Assembly: GCF_963678165.1 (NCBI RefSeq)
Contig: NZ_OY782755.1
Span: forward strand, 992,001 to 1,056,000
DNA: 64,000 nt
Source: an uncultured Acetobacteroides sp.
GTDB taxonomy: Bacteria; Bacteroidota; Bacteroidia; Bacteroidales; ZOR0009
Direction: 5' to 3'
The translations under genes and the position numbers were made by a program. Position 1 is the stretch's first letter. Each line of letters opens with the position of its first letter. The notes under the pieces are model-generated. The model saw only the letters and a program-made list of their open reading frames with translations. It was not told the DNA's origin and searched no databases. Below, piece after piece: positions 16,127 to 57,488 of the stretch.

Positions 16127-16372
16127 CTGATGCGATTTTTAGGCGATGGTCGTGTGCCATCCCTAAACTTCGGAAACCATTTGGTGGAGCGGTTGTGCCA
16201 TGCGTAAGCTTCGGAAGTCATTTGGGGAAGCAGTTGTGCCATTCGTAAACTTCGGAAACCATTTTGGGAAGCGGTTGCGTCATTCGTAAACTTCGAAAGT
16301 CATTTGGTGGAGCGGTTGTGTCATCCGTAAGCTTCGGAAATTACTCGGTGGAGTGTTCAGCGCAGACTCTTC
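16127..16372. repeat. 41-bp degenerate tandem repeat array
   Basis: The gap between kdsD and the DUF5686 gene contains units aligned on CTTCGGAA at 16168, 16209, 16250, 16291 and 16332, each exactly 41 bases apart, with a more divergent unit starting at 16127. The word GTGCCATnCGTAA recurs in each. Units differ at roughly 10-25% of positions. It lies 3' of kdsD and 5' of the DUF5686 gene. No credible ORF. 15962-16126 shows nothing recognisable. Confidence 0.85.
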
Positions 16373-16391
16373 AGGCTGGTAAATCTCAAAT

Positions 16392-16440
16392 CCATCCTCA
16401 GCAGCCGCTACGCCTACGGGAGGTCTGCTGCTGAGGGTGG
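16392..16440. other. Long inverted repeat (14-bp stem) downstream of kdsD
   Basis: CCATCCTCAGCAGC and GCTGCTGAGGGTGG form a near-perfect 14-bp stem around a 21-base loop. Neither strand has a T run after it, so it is not a typical terminator; it could be a 3' stability hairpin or a transcription-stop of another type. Confidence 0.6.
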
Positions 16441-16492
16441 TTGATAGTATGCTTATAGGTGCTGGAGGCGGTTGCCGCAACTGTTCGTTGGG

Positions 16493-17458
16493 CTAGGCGA
16501 TACCTTCGCGAAGGATGTCGTGGATATGAACCATCCCGGCGTACCTCCCGTCTTGGATGACAACCAACTGCGTTATCTTATTCTTTTCCATCTTGTCGAA
16601 CGCATTAATGGCAAGCTCGTTGATGTCGATCGTCTTGGGGTTAACGGTCATGATATCTTTGGCGAGCAGGTTGTCTACGCTCACCCCCTTTTCCAGCATT
16701 CGCCTTAGGTCGCCATCGGTAATAATCCCGGCAAGCGATTGGTCGTCGTTGACAACGGCGGTTGCGCCAAGCCTTTTCGACGATATCTCTACAATAATTG
16801 GTCGGATGGTCTCGCTGAGCAAAACCTTAGGAACCTCCGCCGAAATCACGTCGGCAACGCGCATGTACAGCTTTTTCCCTAGCGAGCCGCCAGGGTGGAA
16901 GCGGGCAAAATCGCTTGAGGTGAATCCTCGAAGCTTAATGAGCGTCATGGCTAGCGCATCGCCCAGCACCAGTTGTGCGGTAGTCGACGAGGTAGGCGCC
17001 AGGTTGATGGGGCATGCCTCCTTCTCAACCGTAGCCTTTAGCACGTAGTCGGAGTTGAGGGCAAGGTATGAGTCGGTGCTCGACACCATCGCTACGATTT
17101 TGTTGCCAAGGTTGCGAATCAGTGGTACCAGAACTTTTATCTCTGGCGTGTTCCCGCTTTTCGAAAGGATAATGATGATGTCGTTAGGCTGGATAAGACC
17201 AAGGTCGCCATGGATGGCATCGGCTGCATGCATAAAGATGGATGGCGTTCCGGTTGAATTCATGGTTGCCACAATCTTGCTGGCGATGATGGCGCTTTTC
17301 CCAATTCCAGAAACGATGACTCTCCCTTTACAGCTGTATAAAAGCATGGCAATTTCGGCAAACTCATCGTCGATGTAGCTGGCTATTTTTTCAACAGCTC
17401 TAGCTTCTTCGAGGATGGTATCTGCTGCAAATGCTTTTATGTCGAAGTTATTCCCCAT
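16493..17458 (-). CDS. kdsD: D-arabinose-5-phosphate isomerase (KdsD/KpsF/GutQ family)
   Basis: Makes D-arabinose 5-phosphate, the precursor of Kdo for lipopolysaccharide. The 321 residues comprise an N-terminal SIS sugar-isomerase domain (about 35-180, with GIGKSAIIASK, NSTGTPS and LSKSGNTPE) followed by paired CBS domains (about 210-321) containing GIITDGDLRRML. Length and domain order are canonical. It is transcribed divergently from recQ and has a TAACTTTG -7 box 42 bases upstream. The 3' side is followed by the long inverted repeat and the 41-bp array. Confidence 0.93.
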   Translation of the reverse strand: MGNNFDIKAFAADTILEEARAVEKIASYIDDEFAEIAMLLYSCKGRVIVSGIGKSAIIASKIVATMNSTGTPSIFMHAADAIHGDLGLIQPNDIIIILSKSGNTPEIKVLVPLIRNLGNKIVAMVSSTDSYLALNSDYVLKATVEKEACPINLAPTSSTTAQLVLGDALAMTLIKLRGFTSSDFARFHPGGSLGKKLYMRVADVISAEVPKVLLSETIRPIIVEISSKRLGATAVVNDDQSLAGIITDGDLRRMLEKGVSVDNLLAKDIMTVNPKTIDINELAINAFDKMEKNKITQLVVIQDGRYAGMVHIHDILREGIA

Positions 17459-17499
17459 TACTCTTGTTTTTTATTTTTCTCTTGAGTACTTTAGAAATG

Positions 17500-17507
17500 C
17501 AAAGTTA
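17500..17507 (-). promoter_or_regulatory. -7 box of kdsD
   Basis: TAACTTTG on the minus strand, 42 bases before the ATG. The -33 element is not clear. Confidence 0.55.
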
Positions 17508-17610
17508 TTGCTTTTTGACGATAACTTGGCATCTGTTGGAGGCTGATTCTTATGTGTGTTAACTTTTGCAAACCTAGGAGCCGTTGATTGTTATATGAGA
17601 TTTGTTTGGT

Positions 17611-17618
17611 TAACTTTG
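17611..17618 (+). promoter_or_regulatory. -7 box of recQ
   Basis: TAACTTTG, 66 bases before the chosen recQ ATG, with ATTG 20 bases upstream as a possible -33 element. Confidence 0.6.
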
Positions 17619-17683
17619 TTATGTCAGTGTGCAGAAAAGGTACATTTAAATCAAAAAATGCAGTATTAAGAGGGGTAAAAATT

Positions 17684-19882
17684 ATGGCCGAAGAGGTTCG
17701 TGCATCATTAACGGAGTACTTAAAAAAGTACTTTGGTTTTTCTGGGTTCAAAGGAAACCAAGAAGCAATCATTCAAAATGTGCTGGATGGGAAAGACACA
17801 TTTGTGCTTATGCCCACAGGAGGAGGGAAATCGTTATGCTATCAGCTTCCTGCTCTTAAAATGGACGGAACGGCAATCGTAATTTCGCCCCTAATAGCAT
17901 TGATGAAGAATCAGGTTGACGCTATGCGCGCCTTTATGGAAGGTGCCGGGATTGCTCATTTCCTCAATTCTTCGTTGTCGAAAACCGCTATTGCCAAGGT
18001 TAAGGAAGATGTTGTTGCAGGGCGCACAAAACTCTTGTACGTTGCTCCAGAATCGCTCACAAAGGAGGAAAACATACAATTCCTTAAGCAGATAAAGATC
18101 TCGTTTTATGCAATTGATGAGGCACACTGTATCTCGGAATGGGGGCATGATTTTCGGCCAGAGTATAGAAGAATACGTCCAATTATAACAGAAATAGGTA
18201 AAGCCCCTTTGATTGCACTTACTGCAACTGCTACGCCAAAGGTTCAACACGATATTCAGAAGAATCTTGGAATGCTTGATGCAACGGTCTTCAAATCATC
18301 GTTCAACAGGCCAAACCTCTACTACGAGGTACGTCCTAAGCAGGATGCAACTAAGGAGATTATCAAGTTTATTAAAGCCAACAGCGGCAAATCGGGTATC
18401 ATTTACTGCCTAAGCCGGAAAAAGGTGGAAGAACTTGCAGATATACTTAAGGTAAATGGCATAAATGCTGTTCCTTATCATGCAGGGCTTGATTCGAATT
18501 CTCGTTCTGAAAATCAGGATAAGTTTTTGATGGAAGAAACCGATGTGGTGGTGGCCACCATTGCATTTGGCATGGGGATCGACAAGCCCGATGTTCGCTA
18601 TGTAATTCACTACGATATTCCCAAGAGTTTGGAAGGATACTACCAGGAGACTGGTCGTGCTGGCCGCGATGGGGGCGAAGGGAAGTGCATTACTTTTTAC
18701 AGCTACAAGGATATCCAGAAATTGGAGAAGTTTATGCATGGCAAGCCGATTGCCGAGCAGGAAATTGGGAAGCAGCTGCTTCAGGATACGGTTTCCTATG
18801 CAGAATCGTCGGTGTGCCGCAGAAAGATGCTGCTGCTCTATTTCGGTGAAGATTATACGCAGGAGAACTGTGGCTGCTGCGATAACTGCCTTAATCCGAA
18901 GGAACTGTTTGATGGAAAAGATGCCATTCTGAAGGCACTAGAGGTAATCGAAGAGCTGCAGGAGAAGTTTAAGTCCGACCATGTCGTAAACTTTTTGGTG
19001 GGCAACGCAACGGCGGGCATAAAAACCTACAAGCATAACACTAACGAACTTTTTGGGATTGGCAAAGACCGGGATGAAAAGTATTGGAATGGCATTCTTC
19101 GTCAAATGCTCATCAACCATTTGCTAACAAAGGATATTGAGAATTATGGTCTTCTAAAGATATCTCCAAAGGGACGTAAGTACATGGATGAACCATTCTC
19201 TATAATGATGGCAAAGGACCACGATTACGGAGAAGTTGATGACGATGACGTTGCAGGATCAGCCGCTGGCAAAGGTGGTGGTGCTGCCGACGAGGCGCTG
19301 TTTTCCCTTCTGAAGGATCTGCGTAAGTCGATGTCGAAGAAGCTGGGGCTGCCTCCTTTTGTGCTATTCCAAGATCCATCCCTCGAAGATATGTCCATCC
19401 AGTACCCTATCACGATGGAGGAACTTCAGAACATTACGGGGGTAGGGGTTGGAAAGGCCAAAAAGTATGGCAAGGAGTTTATCGAACTCATCAAAAAGTA
19501 CGTTGACGAAAATGAGATTGAGCGACCTCAGGATATGGTCGTAAAGTCGGTGGTCAACAAATCGGGGAATAAGGTTTTCATCATCCAAAGCATCGATAAG
19601 CGGATGGACTTGGGAGATATCGCCAATGCGAAGGGGATGGACATGAAGGATCTGTTGTCTGAAATGGAGGCAATCGTTAATTCCGGCACCCGAATAAATC
19701 TCGATTACTATATCAACGAAAATGTGGACGAGGATAAGCTCGAAGAGGTTTTCGACTACTTTAAGAACGAGGCGAAGACGGAGTCTATTCAGGAAGCGCT
19801 AGACTTTCTTGGAGAGGAGGATTATTCCGAGGAGGAGGTTCGGCTTATTCGGCTGAAGTTTATCTCTGAAATGGGCAACTAG
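17684..19882 (+). CDS. recQ: ATP-dependent DNA helicase RecQ
   Basis: 3'-5' helicase of recombination and fork repair. The 732-residue protein contains Walker A MPTGGGKSLCYQLPAL, DEAHCISEWGHDFRPEY, TATAT, the helicase C motif QETGRAGRDG, and the zinc-binding cysteines CRRKMLLLYFGE...CGCCDNC. An RQC winged helix and an HRDC domain (around residues 545-620) follow. A tail of about 110 residues after the HRDC domain is a Bacteroidota feature. The reading frame extends 96 bases further upstream, but the ATG at 17684 is preceded by AAGAGGGG and begins right at the conserved protein, while the -7 box lies inside the extension. Confidence 0.95.
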   Translation: MAEEVRASLTEYLKKYFGFSGFKGNQEAIIQNVLDGKDTFVLMPTGGGKSLCYQLPALKMDGTAIVISPLIALMKNQVDAMRAFMEGAGIAHFLNSSLSKTAIAKVKEDVVAGRTKLLYVAPESLTKEENIQFLKQIKISFYAIDEAHCISEWGHDFRPEYRRIRPIITEIGKAPLIALTATATPKVQHDIQKNLGMLDATVFKSSFNRPNLYYEVRPKQDATKEIIKFIKANSGKSGIIYCLSRKKVEELADILKVNGINAVPYHAGLDSNSRSENQDKFLMEETDVVVATIAFGMGIDKPDVRYVIHYDIPKSLEGYYQETGRAGRDGGEGKCITFYSYKDIQKLEKFMHGKPIAEQEIGKQLLQDTVSYAESSVCRRKMLLLYFGEDYTQENCGCCDNCLNPKELFDGKDAILKALEVIEELQEKFKSDHVVNFLVGNATAGIKTYKHNTNELFGIGKDRDEKYWNGILRQMLINHLLTKDIENYGLLKISPKGRKYMDEPFSIMMAKDHDYGEVDDDDVAGSAAGKGGGAADEALFSLLKDLRKSMSKKLGLPPFVLFQDPSLEDMSIQYPITMEELQNITGVGVGKAKKYGKEFIELIKKYVDENEIERPQDMVVKSVVNKSGNKVFIIQSIDKRMDLGDIANAKGMDMKDLLSEMEAIVNSGTRINLDYYINENVDEDKLEEVFDYFKNEAKTESIQEALDFLGEEDYSEEEVRLIRLKFISEMGN

Positions 19883-19904
19883 ATCATTTGTTGAATAAAA
19901 ATAT

Positions 19905-19938
19905 GCAACCCCGAACTTTTGGTTCGGGGTTGTTTTTT
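19905..19938. terminator. Bidirectional terminator between recQ and the permease gene
   Basis: Stem AACCCCGAAC / GTTCGGGGTT with a 5-base loop, T run on the plus side and A-rich flank on the other, between converging genes. Confidence 0.85.
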
Positions 19939-19969
19939 GTTATGCGATGCTTACTTCGCTTTCTGTAGG

Positions 19970-22281: not shown

Positions 22282-22399
22282 ATCCCCAAAAAATTTTCGA
22301 AAGTTAACAAATAATGGGGAACTGCTGCTCCTGCTCCGAGGATTCATCCCTCCTTGGCGGTGCTCCACTGGCCTTGCGGGGTGCTGCGCCACCTGGTAT

Positions 22400-22785
22400 C
22401 GGCTCGGAGGCCCGAGGTTCGGGTTCTGGAATGGTTCGGATAGGTTCAGCGGCGCGCCTTTGGGGTGTTTGATCCCGGGTGATAGTTCCGGCGGCGCGTC
22501 CGTCCGCCCATTTGACGACCCGTTTAGGTCTTTTATCGCACCGTTTAGGTTTCGAGGCCCGAGGTTTCGGTTCCGGAATGATCCGTTTAGGTCTTTTAAT
22601 GGTCCGTTTAGGTTCGGAATCGAAAAATATCGTCGATTTATCCCAACCGACCGTCGATTAACCTAAAGGCTTCGTCGATCAACCTAAACGCATCGTCAAT
22701 TCACCCAAAAGCATCGATGTTGAACGTATTCGTTTAGGTCCTGGACGTATTCGTTTAGGTTCTGAACCTAAACGAAGGGCTGTAC
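22400..22785. repeat. 21-bp degenerate tandem repeat array with TTTAGGT words in both orientations
   Basis: Between aat and the glycosyltransferase. CGTTTAGGT occurs at 22521, 22542, 22584, 22605, 22731 and 22752, mostly 21 or 42 bases apart. CGTCGATTA-type units follow at 22631, 22652, 22673 and 22694, also 21 apart, carrying AACCTAAA, the reverse complement of the first word. GGCCCGAGG at 22409 and 22556 is separated by 147 = 7 x 21 bases. The array therefore switches orientation in its middle while broadly keeping the 21-base spacing, apart from a phase slip of a few bases. No gene here. Confidence 0.85.
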
Positions 22786-32779: not shown

Positions 32780-33212
32780 TGGACCAAGGCCGATTTCCTT
32801 CCCCCTGCCCCCAATTTCGTTGGCAGCACATCCTGTTTCGGGAGCGGCAAGGCCAATCTCTTTGCCGTAAAGCTCGATTTCGGCATCGTCCCATGCCATT
32901 GCGTTAGCGTTACATTCGGTTTCGCTGCCGTTACGATCAATTTCGGATGCATTACATGGCATTGCGTCGGTGTTAAGTCCGATTGCGGCACCTTCACATG
33001 CCATTGCGTCATCGTCAATGCCGATTTCGTTGCCGCTAATGCTGATTTCGGAACCTCCCCGTGTCATTGCGCCATCTTTACGAGACATTGCGTCAGTGTT
33101 AGGGGTAATTTCATTGCCGTTAAAGCGGATTGCGTTAGCGTCGCATGTCATTGCGTTAGCGTCACATGTCATTGTGTCAGCGGCAGGGTCGATTCCGAGG
33201 TCGCCACATGCC
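32780..33212. repeat. 21-bp degenerate tandem repeat array, about 20 units
   Basis: The word ATTGCG or ATTTCG (occasionally one base changed) occurs at 32793 and then every 21 bases, with hardly a break, through 33192 (for example 32877, 32898, 32940, 32961, 32982, 33003, 33024, 33045, 33066, 33087, 33129, 33150, 33171). The other 15 positions vary but often read TTAGCGTCACATGCC-like. No indel disturbs the phase over 400 bases. It fills the gap from the rsmA stop to the terminator at 33251. One frame on each strand is open only because 21 is a multiple of three. Confidence 0.92.
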
Positions 33213-33250
33213 GCTGCGGAAGGGGATGGAGCGGGGACGCCCTAAACAGC

Positions 33251-33276
33251 AGGAGCCCCGTTGTACAGGGGCTCCT
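33251..33276. terminator. Terminator hairpin between rsmA array and the converging permease gene
   Basis: Perfect 9-bp stem AGGAGCCCC / GGGGCTCCT with an 8-base loop, followed by TTGTTGCTATTTT on the plus strand. It is only 5 bases from the stop of the minus-strand gene. Confidence 0.75.
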
Positions 33277-38686: not shown

Positions 38687-40702
38687 ATGATTATAGGTGG
38701 CTTCAACAGGAAGTACGTACTAGCAATCATGATTGCTGTAGTGTCGGTTGTGATTATTCTCCGTCTTTTTTACATCCAGGTTTTAGATCCATCCTATAAG
38801 GTTACCGCATCCAACAACGTGCTGCGCTACATTACACAGTACCCTTCGCGTGGGCTTATCTACGACCGAAATGGGGAGCTGCTGGTTTGTAACGAGGCGG
38901 CATACGACTTGATGGTAATCTATCAGCAGCTAAAGCCTTTCGATACCGCTGAGTTCTCCGCCATCCTGAGTATCCCTATTGAGCAAATTCGGAAAACATT
39001 GGAGGAGGCTAAGGTCAGATCCTACTACCGTCCGTATGTGTTTGCCAAGCAAATTTCAGCGTTCACCTACGCAACGCTTCAGGAGCGGCTTTATAAATTT
39101 ACCGGCTTTTACGTTCAACCGCGTACCTTGCGCACCTATCCCCTGAAAATTGCGGGGAACTTGCTGGGGTATGTTGGTGAGGTAAACGATAAAACCATAG
39201 AGGAGGAGCCCTACTATAAAATGGGCGACTACATTGGCATCTCGGGCCTAGAGAAGGCCTACGAGGGGGTGCTGAGAGGCCGTAAGGGGGTTGCCATTTC
39301 GCTGGTTGACGTGCATAACCGCATCAAAGGGTCGTACCAGAATGGGCGTTTCGACACCTTGGCCATCCTCGGAAAAAATATTGTAGCGACGATTGACGCC
39401 AAGTTGCAGGCGTATGGCGAGAAGTTGATGACGAATAAGGTGGGCAGTATTGTGGCCATCGAACCTTCTACCGGAGAAATTCTGGCCATGGTAACTGGGC
39501 CCGACTACGACCCAACGGATCTAACCGGGCGTAACCGACGAAAGAACTGGGCAAGGCTGGCGCTAGATCCGCTTAACCCCATGTTCAACCGTGCAACGCA
39601 GGCCATGTATCCTCCCGGATCGACCTTTAAGCTGGTGAATGCGCTAATTGGCCTACAGGAGGGCATTATTGATGAGCACACGGCTTATGGCTGTGGTGGC
39701 GGTTTCGCCTACGGTGGGCGCGTGCTAAAGTGCCACCCCCACGCATCGCCGCTTAACGTTTACGGCGCAATTCAGGTTTCGTGTAATGCCTTTTTTGCCC
39801 GTGAGTACGTAAACTTTATTAATAGCCCAAAGTATGGCTCATCGCATAAGGCCTACCAGGTATGGAAGGATTACGTGAATAGGCTCGGCTTTGGAAGGCA
39901 TCTGAATACCGACCTGAACTACGAAAAAACAGGTATCGTAAAAAAGCCCGAGTACTTCGACAAGATCCATAACGGGCGCTGGAACGGCTATACGATTGTT
40001 TCGATGGGTATCGGGCAGGGCGAACTGGGAACTACGCCGATTCAGATCGCCAACATGGTTTCCACCATTGCCAATAGGGGCTACTACATAACTCCCCATG
40101 CGGTTAAGGACATTGAGGGGCAGCAAATCGACAGGCGCTTTAGGACGAAGAACTACGTAGGAATCAACCCTGCGTACTTTAACATGGTTGTTGAGGGCAT
40201 GCGGATGTCGGTTACGGGAGGTACCTCCTACATTGCCAACATCCCCGGTGTCGAGGTGTGCGGTAAGACCGGTACGGCCCAGAACCCTACGGGAACCAAG
40301 AAGGACCACTCCGTATTTGTGGCCTTTGCACCCAAGGATAATCCCAAAATTGCCATTGCTGTTTACGTCGAAAATGCAGGTTTTGGTGCAACCTACGCGG
40401 CTCCTATTGCGAGCCTGATGATGGAGAAGTACCTAAAAGATACCGTTTCGCGAAAGCCTCTTGAAGATCGTATCGTGAATATGGACCTTACCACCGAGCT
40501 GAAGTACGTATTTGCCGCGCAAAGGGCCGCCAAGGAGGCCAAGGCTAGGGCCAAGAAGGCGCGTGCCGACTCGCTTAAGGGTGCCTCCACGAAAGCCAAG
40601 CTGCCCGCTGGCGTGCGTAAAAAGGCCACGGATGCGCCTGCCCGCAAGGGAAGCTCTTCCGAGCAATCGTCAACTATAAAGAAGGAAAACCGTGAGAAAT
40701 AG
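38687..40702 (+). CDS. mrdA: Penicillin-binding protein 2 (elongation transpeptidase)
   Basis: Class B PBP that crosslinks lateral-wall peptidoglycan with RodA. The 671-residue protein has an N-terminal helix (about 9-28), a dimerisation/pedestal domain with YPSRGLIYDRNGELLVCNE, and the transpeptidase domain with catalytic PPGSTFKLVNA (SxxK), VSCNAFF (SxN) and VCGKTGTAQNP (KTG). A Lys/Ala-rich tail of about 60 residues (KEAKARAKKARADS, then Ser-rich) follows the catalytic domain and is unlike most PBP2s. It overlaps rodA by 11 bases. Confidence 0.96.
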   Translation: MIIGGFNRKYVLAIMIAVVSVVIILRLFYIQVLDPSYKVTASNNVLRYITQYPSRGLIYDRNGELLVCNEAAYDLMVIYQQLKPFDTAEFSAILSIPIEQIRKTLEEAKVRSYYRPYVFAKQISAFTYATLQERLYKFTGFYVQPRTLRTYPLKIAGNLLGYVGEVNDKTIEEEPYYKMGDYIGISGLEKAYEGVLRGRKGVAISLVDVHNRIKGSYQNGRFDTLAILGKNIVATIDAKLQAYGEKLMTNKVGSIVAIEPSTGEILAMVTGPDYDPTDLTGRNRRKNWARLALDPLNPMFNRATQAMYPPGSTFKLVNALIGLQEGIIDEHTAYGCGGGFAYGGRVLKCHPHASPLNVYGAIQVSCNAFFAREYVNFINSPKYGSSHKAYQVWKDYVNRLGFGRHLNTDLNYEKTGIVKKPEYFDKIHNGRWNGYTIVSMGIGQGELGTTPIQIANMVSTIANRGYYITPHAVKDIEGQQIDRRFRTKNYVGINPAYFNMVVEGMRMSVTGGTSYIANIPGVEVCGKTGTAQNPTGTKKDHSVFVAFAPKDNPKIAIAVYVENAGFGATYAAPIASLMMEKYLKDTVSRKPLEDRIVNMDLTTELKYVFAAQRAAKEAKARAKKARADSLKGASTKAKLPAGVRKKATDAPARKGSSSEQSSTIKKENREK

Positions 40703-42116
40703 CAGTACCGCCAATACAACTACTGGCAAGCTCGACTGGACTACCATCCTGATCTACCTGTTCCTCGTTTTCTTTGGGTGGCTCAACATCTATGCTGCGG
40801 TTTACAACGAGGCGCATGCGAATATTTTCGACATATCGCAGCGGTATGGGATGCAGATGATTTGGATAGTGGCGGCCTTTACGATTGCCGCGGTCATCAT
40901 GCTGCTGGATACGCGCCTGTTCTACGCCTTCTCCGAGATTTTTTACGGCATTACCATAGTGCTGCTGCTGCTGGTGCTGGTGGCGGGTAAGGAGGTGAAC
41001 GGGCAGCGCTGCTGGTTCGAGCTGGGCGGCCTTCGCATTCAGCCCGCCGAGTTCGCCAAGGTATCCACGGTGCTGCTACTGGCGCGCGTGATGAGCTCCT
41101 ACAATTTTGTGCTCAACTCGCTTCGAGGCTACCTCCTTGTGGCGGCGGTGCTGCTGCCCCCGCTGGTGCTCATCAAGCTGCAGCCCGATGCCGGCTCGAT
41201 GCTTGTGTATGGCTCGCTGCTCTTTCTACTGTATAAGGAGGGGATGCCCGGCTGGGTGCTTTCGGTTACCCTGTCGGCCGTCGCGCTCTTCATCTTCTCG
41301 CTCCTCTTCGATAAGCTTTACATGGTGATGGCCATTGCCGTGATGGCGCTTGCCGTTGCGGGGTACGCCTACCGCCGTACCAAAACGTCGGTTTTCCTTG
41401 GGGTGCTCATCGCCGGACTTTCGGGGGGGGGGTACTACCTGACGCGCCTGCTTGGCGCCGAGGTGGAGCTCTACTACTTCGTTGCTGGTGCTACGGTTTT
41501 GGTGGCGCTGGTGATGCTGGTGGTTAGCTTCGCCAAGCACATCAAGCGGCTGTGGATGGTAATCGTGATTTTGGTTGCCTCCATCGGCATTAACTACTCC
41601 GTGGACTACGTCTTCCATAAGGTGCTGGCCCTCCACCAGCAGAAGCGTATCAACGATTTGCTGGGAATCGAAAGCGATCCGCTGGGCTGGGGCTACAACG
41701 TCAACCAGAGCAAGATTGCCATTGGTTCGGGCGGCCTGGTGGGGAAGGGATTCCTGCAGGGCACGCAAACCAAGTACAACTTCGTGCCCGAGCAAAGCAC
41801 CGACTTTATCTTTTGTACGATAGGCGAGGAGTGGGGCTTTGTGGGCTCGGTGGTTATCGTGGGGCTATTCACGCTGCTCCTCTTCCGGATCATGCTGATT
41901 GCCGACCGCCAGCGCGAGGCCTTCGCCCGCATATTCGGCTACGGGGTGCTCTCCATCTTCTTCTTCCACTTCGCCATTAACATCGGCATGACCATCGGGC
42001 TGGCGCCTGTGGTGGGCATTCCGCTGCCCTTCATCAGCTACGGGGGGTCGTCGCTCTGGTCCTTCACCATGCTGCTCTTCATCCTGCTGAAGTTCGACGC
42101 CTCGCGCTTCGAGTAG
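40692..42116 (+). CDS. rodA: Peptidoglycan glycosyltransferase RodA (SEDS family)
   Basis: Polymerises lipid II in the elongasome with PBP2. A 474-residue polytopic protein with ten helices. Conserved SEDS features include GKEVNGQRCWFELGGLRIQPAEFAK near residue 98-120 and the C-terminal EQSTDFIFCTIGEEWGF and GIPLPFISYGGSSLW segments. It is longer than the E. coli protein (370 residues) because of extra helices around residues 185-300, a Bacteroidota trait. The last 252 bases are overlapped antisense by the DUF6261-like gene. Confidence 0.95.
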   Translation: MRNSSTANTTTGKLDWTTILIYLFLVFFGWLNIYAAVYNEAHANIFDISQRYGMQMIWIVAAFTIAAVIMLLDTRLFYAFSEIFYGITIVLLLLVLVAGKEVNGQRCWFELGGLRIQPAEFAKVSTVLLLARVMSSYNFVLNSLRGYLLVAAVLLPPLVLIKLQPDAGSMLVYGSLLFLLYKEGMPGWVLSVTLSAVALFIFSLLFDKLYMVMAIAVMALAVAGYAYRRTKTSVFLGVLIAGLSGGGYYLTRLLGAEVELYYFVAGATVLVALVMLVVSFAKHIKRLWMVIVILVASIGINYSVDYVFHKVLALHQQKRINDLLGIESDPLGWGYNVNQSKIAIGSGGLVGKGFLQGTQTKYNFVPEQSTDFIFCTIGEEWGFVGSVVIVGLFTLLLFRIMLIADRQREAFARIFGYGVLSIFFFHFAINIGMTIGLAPVVGIPLPFISYGGSSLWSFTMLLFILLKFDASRFE

Positions 42117-42890
42117 CGGCACCAGGCTGGTGGCTGGCTCTTCCTGGGCGGCCGCCTCGTTGGTGGCGCTCTCGGGCTGCTTCTTCTTCTTGGCGTTGGT
42201 GGCGCGCGCCTTAATCTTGGCGACCAGCGGCGCAATCCAAAGGTTTATTTTTTCGATCGCTTCGGCCACCTCCGGGTAGGCCGATACCGCGTTCAGGTAG
42301 CCGAACGTGCGGGCCAGCACCCCGCAGAGCGCCCGCTGCGCCTCTCGGCTGCGGATGCCCCCCTGCTCGAGTTGCTGCTGACGGCGCTGCGCCTGGCTCT
42401 CCTCGAACCGCAGGTTGGCGGCCTCGAGCAGCGCCAGCGGCTCGTCGCACCAGAGCGTCGTAGCGTCCGCCTGCAGCACGGGTGAGCCTTTGATGTCGGC
42501 CAGCAGCAGCCTGATGGCGTTGCTCCTAGCGGAAGCGCCGCCCCGGTGCAGGTTCCACCCCCTTTTGCGCAGCGCGTCGGTCAGGTGCTGCGCCGCCACC
42601 CGCTGCTGGGCGGAGCCGTATCTCCCCATCTGCAGGGCCCCCTTGATGGCCATGAGGTGCTCGCGCCGCTCGCGGTCGAGCTGTTGGCTGCGCTGCGTGC
42701 CCGACTTGTCGGCCTTGCGCCCAATGCCCCCCTGGTAGCGCGTGATGGCCCTGCCGAGTTCGCCGACCAGCGGCTCGGGCATGCGCCCCGCTGCCTGGAG
42801 CTCCGCGGCAATCTCCAATACCCTTCCCGAAAAGGTGCCCAGCTCGTCGATGTGCACCCGCCTAAGACCTATCTTGCTGATCTTCTTCAT
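41865..42890 (-). CDS. DUF6261-like protein whose frame runs antisense into rodA
   Basis: A 341-codon frame; the first 255 or so residues form an Arg/Ala/Leu/Gln-rich helical protein resembling DUF6261 (start KKISKIGLRRVHIDELGTFS, and LALLEAANLRFEES near residue 165). From about residue 258 the frame enters the complementary strand of rodA, and the final 84 residues are a low-complexity Glu/Gly/His-rich run with no family character. Either a frameshift removed the original stop or the family tail is simply lost. GC content is high. The other DUF6261-like protein is at 7822. Function unknown; the C-terminal end is doubtful. Confidence 0.6.
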   Translation of the reverse strand: MKKISKIGLRRVHIDELGTFSGRVLEIAAELQAAGRMPEPLVGELGRAITRYQGGIGRKADKSGTQRSQQLDRERREHLMAIKGALQMGRYGSAQQRVAAQHLTDALRKRGWNLHRGGASARSNAIRLLLADIKGSPVLQADATTLWCDEPLALLEAANLRFEESQAQRRQQQLEQGGIRSREAQRALCGVLARTFGYLNAVSAYPEVAEAIEKINLWIAPLVAKIKARATNAKKKKQPESATNEAAAQEEPATSLVPLLEARGVELQQDEEQHGEGPERRPPVADEGQRNAHHRRQPDGHADVNGEVEEEDGEHPVAEYAGEGLALAVGNQHDPEEEQRE

Positions 42891-43030
42891 GCCTGCTTCC
42901 TTTTAGGAGCGCGGCTGCTCGCATCGAACCGCACCCAAAGTTTACGATAGTTTAAAGATATAAGCTTACGTTAATAAATTCAATAGCCAAAGCTAACGGG
43001 GCTGATATTTTTTTGAAATGCTATAGCATG

Positions 43031-43380
43031 GCCCATGGGTGGACCATGCCGTAACCATTCGGACAATGGCTTGCCCATTGATGGACCAATGCGTAATCAT
43101 AGTGTTTTGATTAAGTCCAACGATGGGATAGCACGTAACAGTTCTGTTATATGAAAGACCAGCGATGGACTTTCCTATAGCAGGATCATTTTATAATGAT
43201 CCACTAACGGGCAATCATATATCAAATGTGATAAGCCATGGTCCACCCATGGACAAATATTTAGCAGTATGTGTGTAAGTACGCCCATCGATGGACCACT
43301 ACTGAAAAAGTTGTTTGGGTGATGGTCCACCTATGGGCAATGCTGCTGCGGTGCTGTTTGGGATAGGTCCGATGGCTGGT
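43031..43380. repeat. 42-bp tandem repeat array built on a GTCCA-N4-TGGAC palindrome
   Basis: Palindromic cores such as GCCCATGGGTGGACC (43031), GCCCATTGATGGACC (43073), GTCCAACGATGGG (43115), GACCAGCGATGGAC (43157), GATCCACTAACGGGC (43198), GTCCACCCATGGAC (43241), GCCCATCGATGGACC (43283) and GGTCCACCTATGGGC (43324) recur every 41-43 bases. Between cores a GTAA-N-CAT word recurs at 43051, 43093 and 43135, so each 42-bp unit has two 21-bp halves. It fills the 700-base region between the divergent DUF6261-like and cDPGS-like genes; the remainder (42891-43030, 43381-43560) shows nothing clear. Confidence 0.85.
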
Positions 43381-48720: not shown

Positions 48721-48954
48721 GCCGCTCCTTTTATGGTGTTAATTTCTGTTAGGCTAAATATAGCACTACTGAAGCATTTTTCTGGTAGGTTGGCTGCAAT
48801 ATTTGCAGCAAAATGTTGGGGCATGTGAAGGTTTTTCCTCATGGCACTTCTGCTTACGGTTAATGTTGGCTTGTGGCAGCCTCTGATTCCCGGAAATGGG
48901 TGGCTTTCTTTTGCGGTGCAAATGGCATTTGGGCATAGGGTGCCTGTTTCTACG

Positions 48955-49290
48955 GCAGAAAGAGGATAGTTTGTGGCAAACACTCCTCTTTTTGGCGCAG
49001 AAAGAATTCTTTTTGGTGAAAACCAATCTTATTCTAGCGTAGAAATGGTTCTTTTTATTGTGGAAAGAACCTGTTCTTGCTCAGAAAGCATCTCTTTTAG
49101 TGTGGAAAGAGATCATTTTTTTGAAAACCAATCTCACAACAGCGTAGAAACGGTTCATTTTGTTGCAAAAGGAACAGTTTCTGGTCGAGATGAAGTTCTT
49201 CCTTCGCTAGAAGGAATTCTTTCTAATGTAAATTCAAGTGTGTTTTGCTCGGATGCATTTGTGTTCGATGCTATTTACGCTCTTTCTACG
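48955..49290. repeat. 21-bp degenerate tandem repeat array with a 105-bp higher-order period
   Basis: Units beginning GnAGAAAG or similar occur exactly every 21 bases at 48955, 48976, 48997, 49018 and so on to 49270 (16 units), with no indel. The unit GAAAACCAATCT at 49018 recurs at 49123, 105 bases (5 units) later, with similar neighbours (GTAGAAAnGGTTC follows both), which shows a higher-order duplication. More degenerate units continue leftwards to about 48790. The array fills the gap between the ogt 3' end and the cyd operon. A 106-codon frame on the plus strand is open throughout but follows the repeat phase. Confidence 0.9.
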
Positions 49291-50947: not shown

Positions 50948-50965
50948 AAATCCCTTATTTCGGTT

Positions 50966-52066: not shown

Positions 52067-52131
52067 CTATAATAATTTTAGGCGAATATACGAATTAACC
52101 CCTGTAGTTTCGATAGGTGAGCGTAAACATA

Positions 52132-52158
52132 AAAGAGGGGAGTGCTGCTCCCCTCTTT
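52132..52158 (-). terminator. Terminator of psd
   Basis: Stem AAAGAGGGGAG / CTCCCCTCTTT with a 5-base loop, followed on the minus strand by TTTATGTTT, 21 bases past the psd stop. Confidence 0.8.
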
Positions 52159-52178
52159 GCCATATTTTTTTGGTAATG

Positions 52179-52829: not shown

Positions 52830-52848
52830 GTAAGTGCCTGTAATATGA

Positions 52849-53721
52849 TTAAACAATAATAAACATCAAGTAAACAAATGCCGCTGGGGCAGCCAGTAGT
52901 ATGGCGTCAAAACGGTCGAGCATACCTCCGTGTCCGGGGATAATGTTACCAGAATCCTTAATGCCGAGACTACGCTTAAGCATCGATTCTACCAAATCGC
53001 CAAGGTCTGCAAATATAGAAACAACTATCGCAAGTCCGATCCATTCTGGACGGGTCAAACCCGAGAAGCCTAATTTTCCAAGAGGTGCAATATGTGGGTA
53101 AGCATAGTAAAGAGCTATGCTCATTAGGCAGGTAAATACTACTCCGCCAATTATTCCTTCCCAGGTCTTCTTTGGGGAGATCCTTTCGAAGAACTTGTGC
53201 TTTCCTATTGCCATTCCTGTTAGGTAGGCGAAGGTGTCGTTCGTCCATACTAGAATAAATAGGGCAAGGATATAGTACCAGTCGAAAATCACACCGTCAA
53301 GATTCGAGAACTGGAGAAATACCAAAAAGTTAAGGATGGCGAAGGGTATTGCGATGTAAAATACCCCCAGAAGCGTCATTGCAACATTCATAAAGGGGTT
53401 TGGCTTATCCCTAAACAATTCGGAAATAAATATCCCGATGTAAATGAGCAATGGAAATGCTAGGTAAACGACATCCTGATATCCTCCAAATGCAAATACA
53501 AAAAAGGAGATGAAGGTGCCGAGCCCGGCAATTAGCCCAAACGAAAAGTTGGGTGCAATCCCTGCCTTTTTTATGTTGATGTAAAACTCGTTTAGGGTTA
53601 GCCCGATAATAATGAGCATTAAGAGCAAGAAGGTCTCGTACCCAATAATAATTCCCGATACTAAAATTGCAACAAAGATAGCACCGCTTAGGGCTCTGGT
53701 TGTAAAATTGTTAATTTTCAA
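52849..53721 (-). CDS. cdsA: Phosphatidate cytidylyltransferase
   Basis: Makes CDP-diacylglycerol, the precursor for phosphatidylserine used by Psd's pathway. The 290-residue protein has about eight helices. The signature around residue 245-275 reads SMLKRSLGIKDSGNIIPGHG then GGMLDRFD, with SPKKTWEGIIGG near 183. It has its own -7 box inside the end of ftsH and is followed by psd after 19 bases, in the conserved order ftsH-cdsA-psd. Confidence 0.96.
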   Translation of the reverse strand: MKINNFTTRALSGAIFVAILVSGIIIGYETFLLLMLIIIGLTLNEFYINIKKAGIAPNFSFGLIAGLGTFISFFVFAFGGYQDVVYLAFPLLIYIGIFISELFRDKPNPFMNVAMTLLGVFYIAIPFAILNFLVFLQFSNLDGVIFDWYYILALFILVWTNDTFAYLTGMAIGKHKFFERISPKKTWEGIIGGVVFTCLMSIALYYAYPHIAPLGKLGFSGLTRPEWIGLAIVVSIFADLGDLVESMLKRSLGIKDSGNIIPGHGGMLDRFDAILLAAPAAFVYLMFIIV

Positions 53722-53792
53722 AACGTTTGGCTGTTTTCTTTGCTTGTTTTACATATTCCTTATGGCATATCGCTCTGTAGCAATAATTGCAA

Positions 53793-53800
53793 CAAAGGTA
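53793..53800 (-). promoter_or_regulatory. -7 box of cdsA-psd
   Basis: TACCTTTG on the minus strand, 71 bases before the cdsA ATG, 4 bases past the ftsH stop. Confidence 0.55.
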
Positions 53801-53803
53801 TGC

Positions 53804-55951
53804 TTACTCGTTTGAATTTTCCTTTTGAGATTCGCTGTCGGCTTCTGCACTGTTCTCTTCAGGTGCTGCTTCTCCAAGAGATTTTGCTTCTTCAACGGGT
53901 TTTACGCTTAGAAGTTCTTCTTTTGCGCCCTTCCTTTTGCCAAAAATTGCCTCTAAGTCTTCGCTGAAGATTACTTCTTTTTCAAGGAGTAGTTCAGAAA
54001 GCTTATTAAGCCCTTCTCGATTTTCATTTAGGGTGCTTTTAGCACGTAGGTAGGCTTCCTCAATAATACTCTTTACCTCAGAGTCGATAGTTTCGGCAGT
54101 CTTTTCGCTATATGGCTTGCCAAACATGTATTCGTTTTGACCTGTTGAGTCGTAGAAACTGAGGTTTCCAAGTTCCTTGTTCATGCCGTAGTACGATACC
54201 ATGGCATAGGCTTGCTTGGTTACTCTCTCGAGATCGTTAAGTGCGCCAGTTGAGATTTTTCCAAATACAATTTCCTCGGAGGCACGTCCGCCCAATGTTG
54301 CTGCTAACTCGTCCATTAACTGTTCGCGGGTGGTTATTTGTCTTTCTTCGGGGAGATACCATGCTGCGCCAAGTGCTCGTCCACGAGGAACGATGGTTAC
54401 TTTAAGAAGCGGATTGGCATATTCAAGTAACCACGAAACGGTAGCGTGTCCGCCCTCGTGGTAGGCTATGGTTTTCTTTTCGTCGAGAGATATTATCTTG
54501 TTTTTCTTTTCAAGGCCTCCAATGATACGGTCTATGGCATCAAGGAAATCCTGTCTCTCTACCTGTTTCTTATCCTTGCGGGCTGCAACAAGGGCTGCTT
54601 CGTTACATACGTTGGCAATGTCGGCACCCGAGAACCCTGGGGTTTGCTTGGCAAGGAAACTTGTTTCGAGTTCTGGGGCTAACTTTAGTGGACGGAGGTG
54701 AACCTTGAATATTTCAGCACGTCCGTTTAGGTCGGGGAGCTCAACGTAGATTTGTCGGTCAAAACGTCCGGCGCGAAGTAGTGCCCGGTCGAGAATATCG
54801 GCACGGTTGGTTGCTGCGAGGATGATTACTCCTACGTTGGTGCCAAAGCCATCCATCTCGGTTAGCAGCTGGTTGAGGGTGTTCTCGCGTTCGTCGTTGC
54901 CCGAGAAGTTGGCGTTTTTGCCTCTGGCACGGCCAATCGCATCGATCTCATCAATAAATACGATACATGGTGCTTTTTCCTTTGCCTGCTTGAAGAGGTC
55001 GCGTACGCGCGATGCGCCTACGCCGACAAACATCTCTACAAAGTCAGATCCCGAGAGGGAGAAAAAGGGAACGTTGGCTTCGCCAGCAACTGCCTTTGCG
55101 AGCAATGTTTTTCCGGTTCCTGGAGGGCCTACGAGGAGAGCTCCTTTGGGTATTTTACCTCCTAGTTCGGTGTATTTTTGTGGGTTCTTTAGGAAATCAA
55201 CAATCTCCATTACTTCAACTTTGGCCTCGTCGAGTCCAGCAACGTCGTTGAAGTTAACCCTTACGTGGTTTTCCTTATCGAACAGCTGCGCCTTAGACTT
55301 GCCAACGTTAAAGATGTTGCCGCCGCCTCCGCCGCCTGCTCCTTTAGACATGCGTCGGATGATGAATACCCAAAATCCAATGATTAGTGCGGTATACAGT
55401 AGGAAGGTGAATATGTCGCCAGTCCAATCCTTCTTGTTGTTAAAGGTAATGGTGGCTTGACTTCCTGCTGGAAGTGTTCTCTGGTAATCTTCGATGTTTT
55501 TTTGGAACTCGTCGGGCGATCCGATGGAGAAGTAGAACTGAGGACCATTCTTTGATGGCGAGCTGAAACTGTTCTCAAAGTCTTTCTTGTAGTTTTTAAC
55601 CCTATCCTTTTTTATGTAAACGTCTACGCGCCTATCGTTGCTAACGATATCTAAGCGTTCAACGTCTCCTTTGGGGAGCATTTGGGTTTTTACTTTTTGC
55701 AGGTTTGTCTCAACTGGCGATCCGCCGCTGTAGAAAAAGTTTAGGCCTATGATGGCAAGGGCCACGATAGCATAAATCCAGTATATGCTAAATTTAGGTT
55801 GAGGAAACTTGCTGCCCCCTCCTTGTTTGTTATTGTTGTCCATGTCGTTTTTTCCGTCGATATTGAAAAAGGCCTTTATGCGGCTACTGATGGGTAGCAA
55901 AACCTTCGCTATGCTTTTGTTCGTGTATGGTGTTTTTTTCTGTCTATCCAT
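53804..55951 (-). CDS. ftsH: ATP-dependent zinc metalloprotease FtsH
   Basis: Membrane-anchored AAA+ protease for damaged or short-lived membrane and cytosolic proteins. The 715 residues contain two N-terminal helices, Walker [19 protein letters not shown], Walker [17 protein letters not shown], second-region-of-homology [20 protein letters not shown], and zinc-binding HEGGH in the peptidase part. The ATG at 55951 overlaps the rsfS stop (ATGGATAG), but MDNNNKQGG at 55843 is an alternative that looks more like the usual Bacteroidota N-terminus; the first 36 residues may not be translated. Confidence 0.96.
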
Positions 55952-56315
55952 GTTTTACTCTTTTTGCATCGGCCCAAAGATCTTCCAACTTGTAAAAGTC
56001 CCTTTGTTCGGTTTGAAATACGTGCAGCACGACATCTCCGTAGTCGAGTAATACCCAAAGGCAATTATCGTACCCTTCGCTGTGCCATGGTTTTTCGCCT
56101 GTTTTTTCCAGCACTTTGTCATGCACACCGTCGGCAATGGCTCCTACCTGTGTGGTAGAGTTGGCGTTGCATACTATGAAATATTGGCAGACGGCATTAT
56201 CGAGCTTCCTTAAATCGAGGCTTACGATGTTTTCTCCCTTCTTATCGTCAGCGGCCTCTACTATAGCAGTAACTAGTTCTTGGGTATGATCTTTGACGCT
56301 GGTTTGCTTTGCCAT
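55944..56315 (-). CDS. rsfS: Ribosome silencing factor RsfS
   Basis: Binds L14 of the 50S subunit and blocks subunit joining in starvation. The 123 residues show LRKLDNAVCQYFIVCNANSTTQV near 35-58, PWHSEGYDNCLWVLLDYGDVVLHVF near 78-102 and the C-terminal FYKLEDLWADA; the aspartate-rich domain of the RsfS/Iojap family is complete. It lies upstream of ftsH (8-base overlap), a standard Bacteroidota pairing, and is divergent from birA. Confidence 0.94.
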   Translation of the reverse strand: MAKQTSVKDHTQELVTAIVEAADDKKGENIVSLDLRKLDNAVCQYFIVCNANSTTQVGAIADGVHDKVLEKTGEKPWHSEGYDNCLWVLLDYGDVVLHVFQTEQRDFYKLEDLWADAKRVKHG

Positions 56316-56345
56316 TAAGCTGCTGTTCTAAATAATGTTTGCGTG

Positions 56346-56353
56346 CAAATGTA
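56346..56353 (-). promoter_or_regulatory. -7 box of rsfS-ftsH
   Basis: TACATTTG on the minus strand, 30 bases before the rsfS ATG; -33 element unclear. Confidence 0.55.
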
Positions 56354-56442
56354 CTTGTTTGTACCAATATTAAGCGCAATAAATCCAATCTAAATCCCGC
56401 TTTAATGGGCAAAGTAACAAAAAAAAACAAAATAAAGTTTAA

Positions 56443-56450
56443 TACTTTTG
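56443..56450 (+). promoter_or_regulatory. -7 box of birA
   Basis: TACTTTTG, matching TAnnTTTG, 18 bases before the birA ATG. Confidence 0.55.
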
Positions 56451-56468
56451 CCCCTCAAACGGTAATGT

Positions 56469-57236
56469 ATGAGTAAAACTTTCACGAATCGTATTGGTGG
56501 TGTTATCGGGTCGAATGTCGTGTACGAGCCTGTTGCGGAGTCGACAAATACGGAGGCCACCTTGGCGCTTGCCCGAAAGGAGCCGGAGGGGGCTACTTAT
56601 ATTGTAGACTTTCAAACCAAAGGACGGGGGCAGCGGGGAAACTTCTGGGAAAGCGAGGAGGGAAAGAACCTTACCTTCTCGATTCTTACGTACCCGGGCT
56701 TTGTGGAGGTGTACGACCACTTCTACCTCTCGAAGGTGGTGGCCAACGGGGTGGTGCAGGCTTTGGAGCAGCTTGGCGTTCGAGCAAAGATTAAGTGGCC
56801 AAACGATATCTACGTGGGCGACCTGAAGGTGGCCGGCATTCTTATCGAAAATGGCCTGATGGGGAATTGCCTCTCGCATAGCATCTGGGGCATTGGGCTT
56901 AACGTTAACCAGCAGGCTTTTGCCAGCGATGCGCCAAATCCAACGTCGATGGCGCTGATTCTGGGTCGCGAGCTGGGCCGCAACGAGGTGCTGCAGGCCG
57001 TGCTGGGCGCTATCGATGGCTGGTACGCGAAGCTGAGGAATGGCGAAAAGGCCGATATCGATGCCTACTACTTTAATGCACTATACCGAAGTCAGGGTGT
57101 GTACTGGTTTATGGCCGATGGCGAGCGCTTCAGGGCCTCTATAAAGGAGATTCAGCATACCGGCGAGCTGGTGCTGGAGGATGAGAGGGGGGCGCTTCGC
57201 TCGTTTGCATTTAAGGAGGTGGCGTTTATTATCTAG
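56469..57236 (+). CDS. birA: Biotin--[acetyl-CoA-carboxylase] ligase
   Basis: Transfers biotin to the carboxyl-carrier protein of acetyl-CoA carboxylase. The 255 residues cover the catalytic domain only, without the DNA-binding N-terminus of E. coli BirA, so it is not a repressor. Motifs: TKGRGQRGNFWESEEGKNL near residue 50-70 (the GRGRRG biotinyl-AMP loop) and KIKWPNDIYVGDLKVAGILIE (here AKIKWPNDI) near 120. It is divergent from rsfS and followed at once by a 21-bp repeat array that starts at its stop codon. Confidence 0.94.
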   Translation: MSKTFTNRIGGVIGSNVVYEPVAESTNTEATLALARKEPEGATYIVDFQTKGRGQRGNFWESEEGKNLTFSILTYPGFVEVYDHFYLSKVVANGVVQALEQLGVRAKIKWPNDIYVGDLKVAGILIENGLMGNCLSHSIWGIGLNVNQQAFASDAPNPTSMALILGRELGRNEVLQAVLGAIDGWYAKLRNGEKADIDAYYFNALYRSQGVYWFMADGERFRASIKEIQHTGELVLEDERGALRSFAFKEVAFII

Positions 57237-57465
57237 CGACATCGGTAGAATTGCTAGCGACATTGGTAGAATTGGTAGCAACATCGGTAGAATCGGTAGC
57301 GACATCGGTAGAATGGCTAGCAACATTGGTAGAATGACCAGCAACATGGGTAGAATTGCCAGCGACATCGGTAGAATAGGTGGCAACATGGGTAAAATAG
57401 CTGGCGACATTGGTAGAATTACCAGCGACATTGGTAGAATTACCAGCGACATCGGTAGAATTGAT
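57235..57465. repeat. Near-perfect 21-bp tandem repeat array, 11 units
   Basis: AGCGACATCGGTAGAATTGC-type units start at 57235, 57256, 57277 and then every 21 bases to 57445, the most regular array in the window. Variation is limited: C/T at the ninth base, G/A in GCGAC/GCAAC, and variable last four bases. The first unit overlaps the birA TAG stop. A bidirectional terminator follows at 57489. Reading frames through it give 7-residue repeats such as SDIGRIA or NSTDVAS, which are a consequence of the period. Confidence 0.95.
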
Positions 57466-57488
57466 GGCGTACTCGAATAGGATATGCG

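What the first reader, a model, noticed from the sequence alone, without database searches (positions are those of the whole stretch)
16127..57470. A family of intergenic arrays that share a 21-bp period but not a sequence
Every protein-gene-free gap longer than 300 bases that has no RNA gene (seven gaps) holds tandem repeats, six of them clear: 16127-16372, 22400-22785, 32780-33212, 43031-43380, 48955-49290 and 57235-57465. The repeated words are unrelated (CTTCGGAA, TTTAGGT, ATTGCG, TGGAC palindromes, GnAGAAAG, AGCGACATCGG), yet the period is 21 in four and 41-42 in two. Five of the six clear arrays lie directly 3' of a gene, and two sit between a stop codon and a hairpin terminator. 21 bp is two helical turns, so a repeated word would face one side of the helix. 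A single process or function that fixes the period but not the sequence would explain this. What it is, I cannot say; no repeat-specific protein gene is in the window.
Basis: partly seen in the sequence, partly recalled or inferred. Interest (0 to 1): 0.85.

Follow-up and report, generated by a model that had tools for sequence, protein, structure and literature searches.

The report
Genes carrying private helix-phased repeat arrays
A Bacteroidota bacterium carries many short repeat arrays whose sequences differ but whose spacing is almost always about two or four turns of DNA, and many of them sit just in front of two gene families, as if each such protein had its own private row of DNA docking sites.

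Summary
Stretches from 20 order relatives gave 5 noncoding arrays, none in the band. Inside units, conservation oscillates at 10.5 bp (42-bp arrays z=10.1, n=40; Pedobacter z=4.8, n=7) without codon signal: one DNA face is kept. DUF6261 (38 copies here, rare elsewhere) has a 40-43 bp (or double) array upstream in 64 of 70 genes checked in nine genomes; an HTH_26 (Cro/C1-type) family has a 21n array upstream in 25 of 26; other genes 32 of 459. Words recur at remote satellites: 8 of 55 match one specific DUF6261 home; Pedobacter's only strong HTH_26 member shares its word with one of seven arrays. Best explanation (inferred): each protein binds its own phased operator row, plus satellites. Binding is untested; an RNA role for DUF6261 arrays stays open; most satellites have no known home.

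The parts
7240..7582 (+).
7822..8574 (+). DUF6261 (PF19775) gene, 250 aa
   Evidence: genome search (G000:1000029-1000490, E 6.4e-26)
41865..42890 (-). DUF6261 (PF19775) gene, 341 aa, with a long C-terminal extension; gene and array are both absent from the orthologous ~0.4-kb gap of G002
43005..43346 (-). Home array of the DUF6261 gene at 41865-42890; 8 units of 42 bp, TGGTCCA..TGGACCA dyads; an array with the same word lies at L093:8084
16116..16378 (.). Array A, 41-bp units; no array in the orthologous G002 gap; no home gene identified
22398..22775 (.). Array B, 21-bp units, GTTTAGGT in both orientations; G002 has a gap of ~55 bp here
32790..33220 (.). Array C, 21-bp units, ATTKCG core, between the ksgA stop and a terminator-like hairpin; word shared with L099:3755 (upstream of a family-B gene), L103 and L104; no array here in G002 or G001
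48953..49276 (.). Array E, 21-bp units, TTTCT/AGAAA half-sites; orthologous array with the same word in G002
57233..57463 (.). Array F, 11 x 21 bp, AGCGACATCGGTAGAAT, between the lipoate/biotin-ligase stop and a terminator-like hairpin; same word at G000:2366029 and in the orthologous G002 gap
33252..33275 (.). Terminator-like hairpin after array C
   Evidence: sequence
57494..57517 (.). Terminator-like hairpin after array F, followed by a T run
   Evidence: sequence

Best explanation
The arrays are rows of DNA docking sites (operators) phased to the double helix. Conserved patches recur about every 10.5 bp on one face and tend to alternate in orientation, so one dimer site takes ~21 bp and a pair of sites ~42 bp. 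The row directly upstream of a DUF6261 or HTH_26 gene is that protein's private 'home' array, probably used for autoregulation. Rows with the same word elsewhere in the genome are satellites bound by the same protein. Rows expand and decay by copying whole units; only expansions that keep an integral number of helical turns keep the sites on one face, so the period is conserved while each protein's word drifts. Shown here: the period, the 10.5-bp conservation, the gene association, home-satellite word sharing for some satellites, and word conservation between most orthologues. Inferred: DNA binding, autoregulation, one protein per word. For the majority of satellites, which match no known home, the cognate protein is unknown.
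For: Period band 68 of 72, shuffles 0. Conservation power at 10.5 bp: P=42 z=10.1 (n=40), P=21 z=5.0 (n=15), still z 4.8-6.0 against contiguity-matched nulls; Pedobacter z=4.8 (n=7, three of one word family). By class: DUF6261 homes P=41 z=8.9 at 10.25 bp (n=18), P=42 z=3.9 (n=26); HTH_26 homes P=21 z=3.3 (n=14); arrays near neither family P=42 z=8.2 (n=26), P=21 z=3.8 (n=12). Neighbouring conserved patches resemble each other's reverse complement (3.02+-0.09 matches of 7; troughs 2.43+-0.07; letters permuted 2.71+-0.08; direct 2.29+-0.07), with no row covariation at those axes (z -0.10+-0.09, 160 axes). Gene association, DUF6261: 37/38 in G000; G031 6/7, G004 1/1, G039 1/1, G042 4/4; G002 7/7 and G001 5/7 of those fetched; G056 2/3, G114 1/2: 64 of 70. 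HTH_26: 25 of 26 fetched strong members. Base rate 32/459 upstream, 57/459 downstream. HTH_26 is a Cro/C1-type DNA-binding domain. Eight of 55 arrays away from DUF6261 genes match single homes at 0.82-0.97 against null 99% 0.67. Pedobacter home vs L239 0.93. HTH_26 pairs of >=60% identity between G000 and G002: 10 pairs, mean word similarity 0.65, against 0.36 for 80 other pairs. GT 266 vs AC 301 in home stems: no RNA-wobble excess.
Against: DUF6261 has no recognised DNA-binding domain; its best PDB matches are designed helical repeat proteins at E 0.0015; its structure job had not finished. Words do not track protein similarity across paralogues (Mantel r 0.012, p 0.34), and one HTH_26 orthologue pair at 89% identity scores only 0.45. 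39 of 55 arrays away from DUF6261 are not over the 95% null for any home. In the 924-kb sample only 14 of 72 arrays lie beside either family. HTH_26 homes with P=41 or 42 (n=4 each) show no 10.5-bp peak; G001 arrays neither (n=3, z 1.8). In DUF6261 homes the strongest harmonic is the whole unit (z 10.7 and 10.3), not 10.5 bp. The inverted-patch excess over letter-permuted patches is modest (3.02 vs 2.71). Pedobacter has one strong HTH_26 member and no DUF6261 but several other words. Signs of pairing exist: column-permuted folds average z -0.53 and -0.64 over 53 arrays; best-centre covariation p<=0.05 in 10 of 74; home stems above shuffles with covariation z 0.67+-0.15.
Confidence: 0.55

Rival explanations
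1. RNA module: the home array is transcribed as a chain of small hairpins that binds the downstream protein, as in type III toxin-antitoxin systems; satellites are dispersed RNA decoys or relics.
For: The array lies directly upstream of the gene, as in ToxIN (passages of PMC8860590). DUF6261 home arrays have consensus stems above shuffles on average (5.90 vs 4.50, n=49, though only 7 exceed the 95% level singly), two dyad centres 20-21.5 bp apart in 24 of 49, and slight covariation z 0.67+-0.15. Pooled arrays fold slightly better than column-permuted ones (mean z -0.53 and -0.64, n=53). Window array 43005-43346 folds with z -8.9.
Against: GT pairs do not exceed AC mismatches in the gene-sense strand (266 vs 301). 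Arrays of 41-43 bp away from DUF6261 have no stem excess (4.45 vs 4.50, n=40). No covariation at patch axes. The second family is an HTH DNA-binding protein. No Rfam family fits the arrays searched. Array 7240-7582 folds with z only -1.9.
Confidence: 0.2
2. Selfish modules: gene plus array is a mobile unit and satellites are its non-autonomous offspring, comparable in logic to RAYT/REP, with the periodicity serving the mobilising protein.
For: The DUF6261 gene and array D are both absent from the orthologous ~0.4-kb G002 gap. Arrays A, B and C have no array in the orthologous G002 gaps. Some satellites share words with single homes. Copy number is high in one genus (38/33/18) and the family is rare elsewhere (2 of 197 other phylum genomes).
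Against: No transposase or nuclease domain seen in the members scanned. Y1 transposases do not explain it: G001 has none and still has arrays, and RAYT neighbourhoods carry other repeats. Boundaries and target-site duplications were not analysed; loss in G002 was not excluded.
Confidence: 0.15
3. Neutral minisatellites whose slippage is biased to integral helical turns.
For: Near-identical and degenerate arrays coexist; the G002 array at site E is more homogeneous than the G000 one.
Against: Does not predict 64/70 and 25/26 gene association, contiguous conserved cores, orthologue word conservation or home-satellite sharing.
Confidence: 0.05
4. Coding heptad repeats (21 bp = 7 codons; 10.5 bp = 3.5 residues of an amphipathic helix).
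For: Period and 10.5-bp harmonic would fit a coiled coil; 59 of 91 arrays have at least one stop-free frame.
Against: No 3-bp conservation signal (z 0.9 and -1.4); 41- and 43-bp units exist; 32 of 91 arrays are closed in all six frames; codon scores inside arrays are mostly negative.
Confidence: 0.03

Closest known systems
Plasmid iterons (recalled)
   Same: Direct repeats of about 21-22 bp in helical phase bound cooperatively on one face
   Different: Chromosomal, tens of different words, upstream of HTH_26/DUF6261 genes, no replication role shown
Autoregulated Cro/C1-type repressor operators (recalled)
   Same: HTH homodimer geometry, half-sites about one turn apart, operator beside the gene
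   Different: 7-19 consecutive units in the fourteen 21-bp HTH_26 rows, many private words, remote satellites
Type III toxin-antitoxin loci (ToxIN; passages of PMC8860590)
   Same: Tandem repeats directly upstream of a single gene
   Different: About 3-5.6 RNA pseudoknot repeats in the clusters described there; here mostly more units, helix-phased, no wobble signal, no ToxN-like domain, second family is HTH
REP/BIME elements with RAYT (PMC3733652 passages; BIME recalled)
   Same: Intergenic, partly palindromic repeats, one protein family tied to repeats
   Different: No Y1 transposase needed; fixed helical period; array sits 5' of its gene

Membership tests
REP/RAYT | Y1 (RAYT) gene present with its repeats beside it | tested here: not met
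   G001 has 0 Y1_Tnp matches but has arrays; the sampled RAYT neighbourhoods in G000 carry other repeats
REP/RAYT | GTAG-type foot on the repeat | tested here: inconclusive
   GTAG/CTAC in 17 of 53 consensus units vs 9.7 expected; GGAG not enriched
Type III toxin-antitoxin | Tandem repeats directly upstream of the gene | tested here: met
Type III toxin-antitoxin | Array acts as structured RNA | tested here: inconclusive
   Stems in DUF6261 homes, but GT about equal to AC and little covariation; no Rfam match on the arrays searched
Type III toxin-antitoxin | ToxN-like endoribonuclease | tested here: not met
   Pfam gives only DUF6261 or HTH_26 in members scanned; PADLOC and NCBIfam give nothing
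CRISPR | Near-identical repeats with unique spacers | tested here: not met
   Whole units repeat in most printed arrays; a few (window 43047, L203:11950) alternate conserved and variable halves; cas genes not searched
Autoregulated HTH operator | HTH domain in the adjacent gene | tested here: met
   HTH_26 in 5 of 5 cluster members scanned, 4 above the cut-off; not met for DUF6261
Autoregulated HTH operator | Protein binds the site and regulates the gene | not testable with these tools
   needs footprinting or reporter assays
Plasmid iterons | Replication initiator bound at an origin | tested here: not met
   Genes beside home arrays are HTH_26 or DUF6261; about 7.8 noncoding arrays per 100 kb of sampled chromosome

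The most novel reading that the evidence does not exclude
A new class of modules in Bacteroidota: at least two unrelated protein families (DUF6261 and an HTH_26 family, perhaps a third with a CarboxypepD_reg-like C-terminus) have multiplied within one genus, each paralogue pairing with its own private, helix-phased docking array and seeding satellites with the same word around the chromosome: a self-diversifying protein-array code that may organise the nucleoid or silence genes.
Probability: 0.45. Interest if true: 0.93.

Novelty: categorically new. Interest (0 to 1): 0.85.

Why it matters
It turns an odd periodicity into a testable gene-array system. It assigns a genomic context to DUF6261, a family named in only one paper of the held library, by its title on another subject (listing). 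And it offers a natural set of many protein-DNA word pairs diverging side by side, good for studying how DNA recognition evolves and whether arrays shape bacterial chromosomes.

Tried and rejected
Hairpin chain as the common feature: local stems of pooled 42-bp arrays do not exceed random intergenic 42-mers (0.660 vs 0.657), although cyclic dyads do (z 5.1, 11 of 47 above the 95% control level; 42 of 77 arrays p<=0.05 against column permutation) and DUF6261 homes have stems. DNA bending: A/T content has no clear 10.5-bp signal (z 1.6; the 7-bp harmonic deviates more, z 5.2). Coding heptads: rejected. RAYT/REP: rejected. HTH_3 expansion: G000 has 8, the range over 13 genomes being 1-24. Protein-word Mantel test: no correlation. 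Family B (CarboxypepD_reg-like): 4 of 6 sampled genes have an upstream array, left as a lead; hhalign shows no relation to DUF6261. One window DUF6261 protein found no relative in viral contigs. Literature: ten searches; no title or abstract in the lists shown describes such arrays, but the lists were capped (20 of 201, 10 of 981, 6 of 15); two papers were read by passages only.

Error corrected: one search took genome-search loci as oriented to the match, which they are not; one search repeats it with orientation. Uneven thresholds: the gene-association counts use z>=5.0 (4.8; L361/L362: 4.5), the base rate uses arrays at z>=6; at z>=6 the G000 DUF6261 count is 36 of 38. Dropped rows: from the HTH_26 count six weak matches (L335-L339, L349) and all members not fetched (G000 10 of 17 and G002 9 of 15 fetched); from the DUF6261 count the members not fetched (26 of 33 in G002, 11 of 18 in G001); from the base rate genes within 1.5 kb of a DUF6261 or HTH_26 gene, within 0.9 kb of a locus end, or overlapped by an array. 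Crude spots: 'coding' calls by ORF score (L091:11875 and L103:6151 counted as coding although they look intergenic); L204:7708 and 8170 may be one array counted twice; the 55 'arrays away from DUF6261' still include HTH_26 home arrays.
Full report
WHAT WAS CHECKED. The window is G000:C1:992001-1056000 of a 4.30-Mb single-contig genome. The relatives of its KsgA are Bacteroidota. All seven arrays are there. I scanned the window plus 43 stretches of 20 kb from the same genome (924 kb; 8 of the 43 stretches were placed round earlier hits). The scan found 82 arrays, 72 of them noncoding by an ORF test, and 68 of the 72 have a best lag in a band round 21n (15% of the tested lags); the exceptions have lags 54, 78, 22 and 22. 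Dinucleotide shuffles give no array. G002 (same genus, 220 kb) has 12 of 14 in the band and G001 (120 kb) 3 of 5. One stretch from each of 20 order relatives gave 5 noncoding arrays, 0 in band. Eighty named Bacteroidota KsgA loci (1.36 Mb) gave 15 noncoding arrays, 4 in band. One of those four led to Pedobacter planticolens, where 20 stretches (four placed on matches, two of these being array matches) held six noncoding arrays with fundamental 21 bp, besides the one first seen in L043 (this scan used z>=5.5, and a seventh, glycine-codon-rich one in L238 is probably coding).

ONE FACE OF THE HELIX. I measured how conserved each column of the unit is. Conserved columns cluster (lag-1 z 7.0) and recur with the helical repeat. 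The strongest harmonic for 42-bp arrays is 10.5 bp (z 10.1, n=40; 42 bp 3.0, 21 bp 3.6, 14 bp -0.2, 8.4 bp -2.8), and it stays at z 4.8-6.0 against nulls matched for contiguity; 21-bp arrays give z 5.0 (n=15), 43-bp arrays peak at 10.75 bp (z 5.1, n=3), 41-bp arrays reach z 2.3 at 10.25 bp (n=4). Pedobacter replicates it (z 4.8, n=7, 0 of 2000 permutations); G002 alone gives z 2.6 (n=7) and G001 1.8 (n=3, stronger at 21 bp). There is no 3-bp codon signal, and 32 of 91 arrays are closed in all six frames. Adjacent conserved patches look like inverted half-sites: 3.02 matches of 7 against 2.43 for troughs, 2.71 for letter-permuted patches and 2.29 direct. Row-by-row covariation at those axes is nil (z -0.10+-0.09). 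That points to recognition of sequence by a protein rather than to pairing, though some tests show weak pairing signals.

ARRAYS BELONG TO GENES. Flanking genes of shared-word arrays repeatedly hit DUF6261. The family has 38 matches in G000, 33 in G002 and 18 in G001, and none in 35 of 38 other order relatives (G031 7, G004 1, G039 1). A phylum draw found it in 2 of 197 other genomes. An array of 40-43 (or 83-84) bp lies upstream of 37 of 38 G000 genes, its near edge 9-345 bp from the start codon taken; nine genes have any array signal within 1.5 kb downstream, only one or two of them of this period. Outside the genus: G031 6 of 7, G004 1/1, G039 1/1, G042 4/4. Of the copies fetched: G002 7 of 7, G001 5 of 7. 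As a prediction test, G056 2 of 3 and G114 1 of 2 (the G114 array ends about 0.5 kb before the domain match). Total 64 of 70. A second family came out of an all-against-all comparison of 238 proteins flanking other arrays: ~116-aa HTH_26 (Cro/C1-type) proteins, with 17 matches in G000, 15 in G002, 4 in G001, 2 in G035, and one strong match each in Pedobacter and G042. An upstream 21n array is present in 10/10, 9/9, 3/3 and 1/2 of the strong members fetched, in Pedobacter (z 13.4) and weakly in G042 (z 5.3): 25 of 26. Other called genes: 32 of 459 upstream, 57 of 459 downstream, counted with arrays at z>=6. Family B (~320 aa, CarboxypepD_reg-like end) has one upstream in 4 of 6 sampled genes.

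HOMES AND SATELLITES. Of 55 arrays away from DUF6261 genes, 16 exceed the 95% null for similarity to some DUF6261 home (2.8 expected) and 8 exceed the 99% null; those 8 score 0.82-0.97 (null 99% 0.67) and point to seven different homes, one of them the window's own array at 43005-43346, matched by L093:8084. Against HTH_26 homes, 5 of 45 exceed the 95% null and 2 the 99% null, so satellite matching is weak for that family in G000. In Pedobacter the home array of the only strong HTH_26 member matches L239 at 0.93 (largest of 300 permutations 0.53) and none of six others (at most 0.37). Most orthologous genes keep their word: HTH_26, 10 pairs of >=60% identity mean 0.65 vs 0.36 for 80 others (range 0.34-0.87); DUF6261, 5 pairs 0.72 vs 0.46 for 254 others (maximum 0.72). 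Across paralogues words do not track proteins. Arrays come and go: A, B, C and D have no counterpart in G002, and for D the DUF6261 gene is missing too; E and F are shared with the same words.

READING. The simplest account is a set of DNA-binding proteins, each with a phased operator row in front of its own gene and further rows elsewhere. The helix fixes the period; each protein's specificity fixes the word. HTH_26 makes this natural for the 21-bp rows. For DUF6261, DNA binding is inferred only: no known domain, home rows with hairpin stems, and an RNA role as in type III toxin-antitoxin loci stays open. The absence of a GT-over-AC excess (266 vs 301) and the lack of stem excess in other 41-43-bp arrays argue against RNA. 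No binding or expression data were available.

LIMITS. About 30% of the own genome was read. Some 330 arrays genome-wide is an extrapolation from a partly targeted sample (72 in 924 kb). Most satellites have no identified home. The structure prediction did not finish.

Noticed in passing
L099:2968-3651, L200:8860-9840, L199:17227-18192, L191:11489-12421: Third gene family (helical-looking N-terminus, CarboxypepD_reg-like C-terminus in most) with an upstream 21n array in 4 of 6 sampled G000 genes; the L099 array shares the word of window array C.
   Followed up: partly
L196:10314-11009 and 11091-11798, L148:3710-4483, L093:1692-2450: Further ~230-257 aa family, four proteins beside three arrays, the array lying on the 3' side; almost no Pfam signal.
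   Followed up: no
L193:9703-10080, L191:6448-6991: Neighbourhoods of Y1 (RAYT-type) transposase genes carry their own repeats (CCCTTCGGGG; ~104-105 bp spacing), distinct from the 21-bp arrays.
   Followed up: partly
window 12224-12306 and 12515-12597: Two tRNA-Leu (tag anticodon) genes in tandem with equal Rfam scores.
   Followed up: no
L361:343-484: Flavo-1 sRNA (RF01705, minus strand) lies at the far edge of the Pedobacter HTH_26 home array.
   Followed up: no
window 41865-42116: The DUF6261 gene at 41865-42890 has a long C-terminal extension (only the paralogue at G000:800981 has another) and overlaps the end of the gene 40692-42116 on the other strand.
   Followed up: no
L203:11950-12201 and window 43047-43340: Some 42-bp arrays alternate a conserved ~21-bp palindrome with a variable ~21-bp half, superficially CRISPR-like.
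   Followed up: no
L321 (G031:C9:44001-57000): 66-bp tandem repeats between two DUF6261 genes in G031.
   Followed up: no
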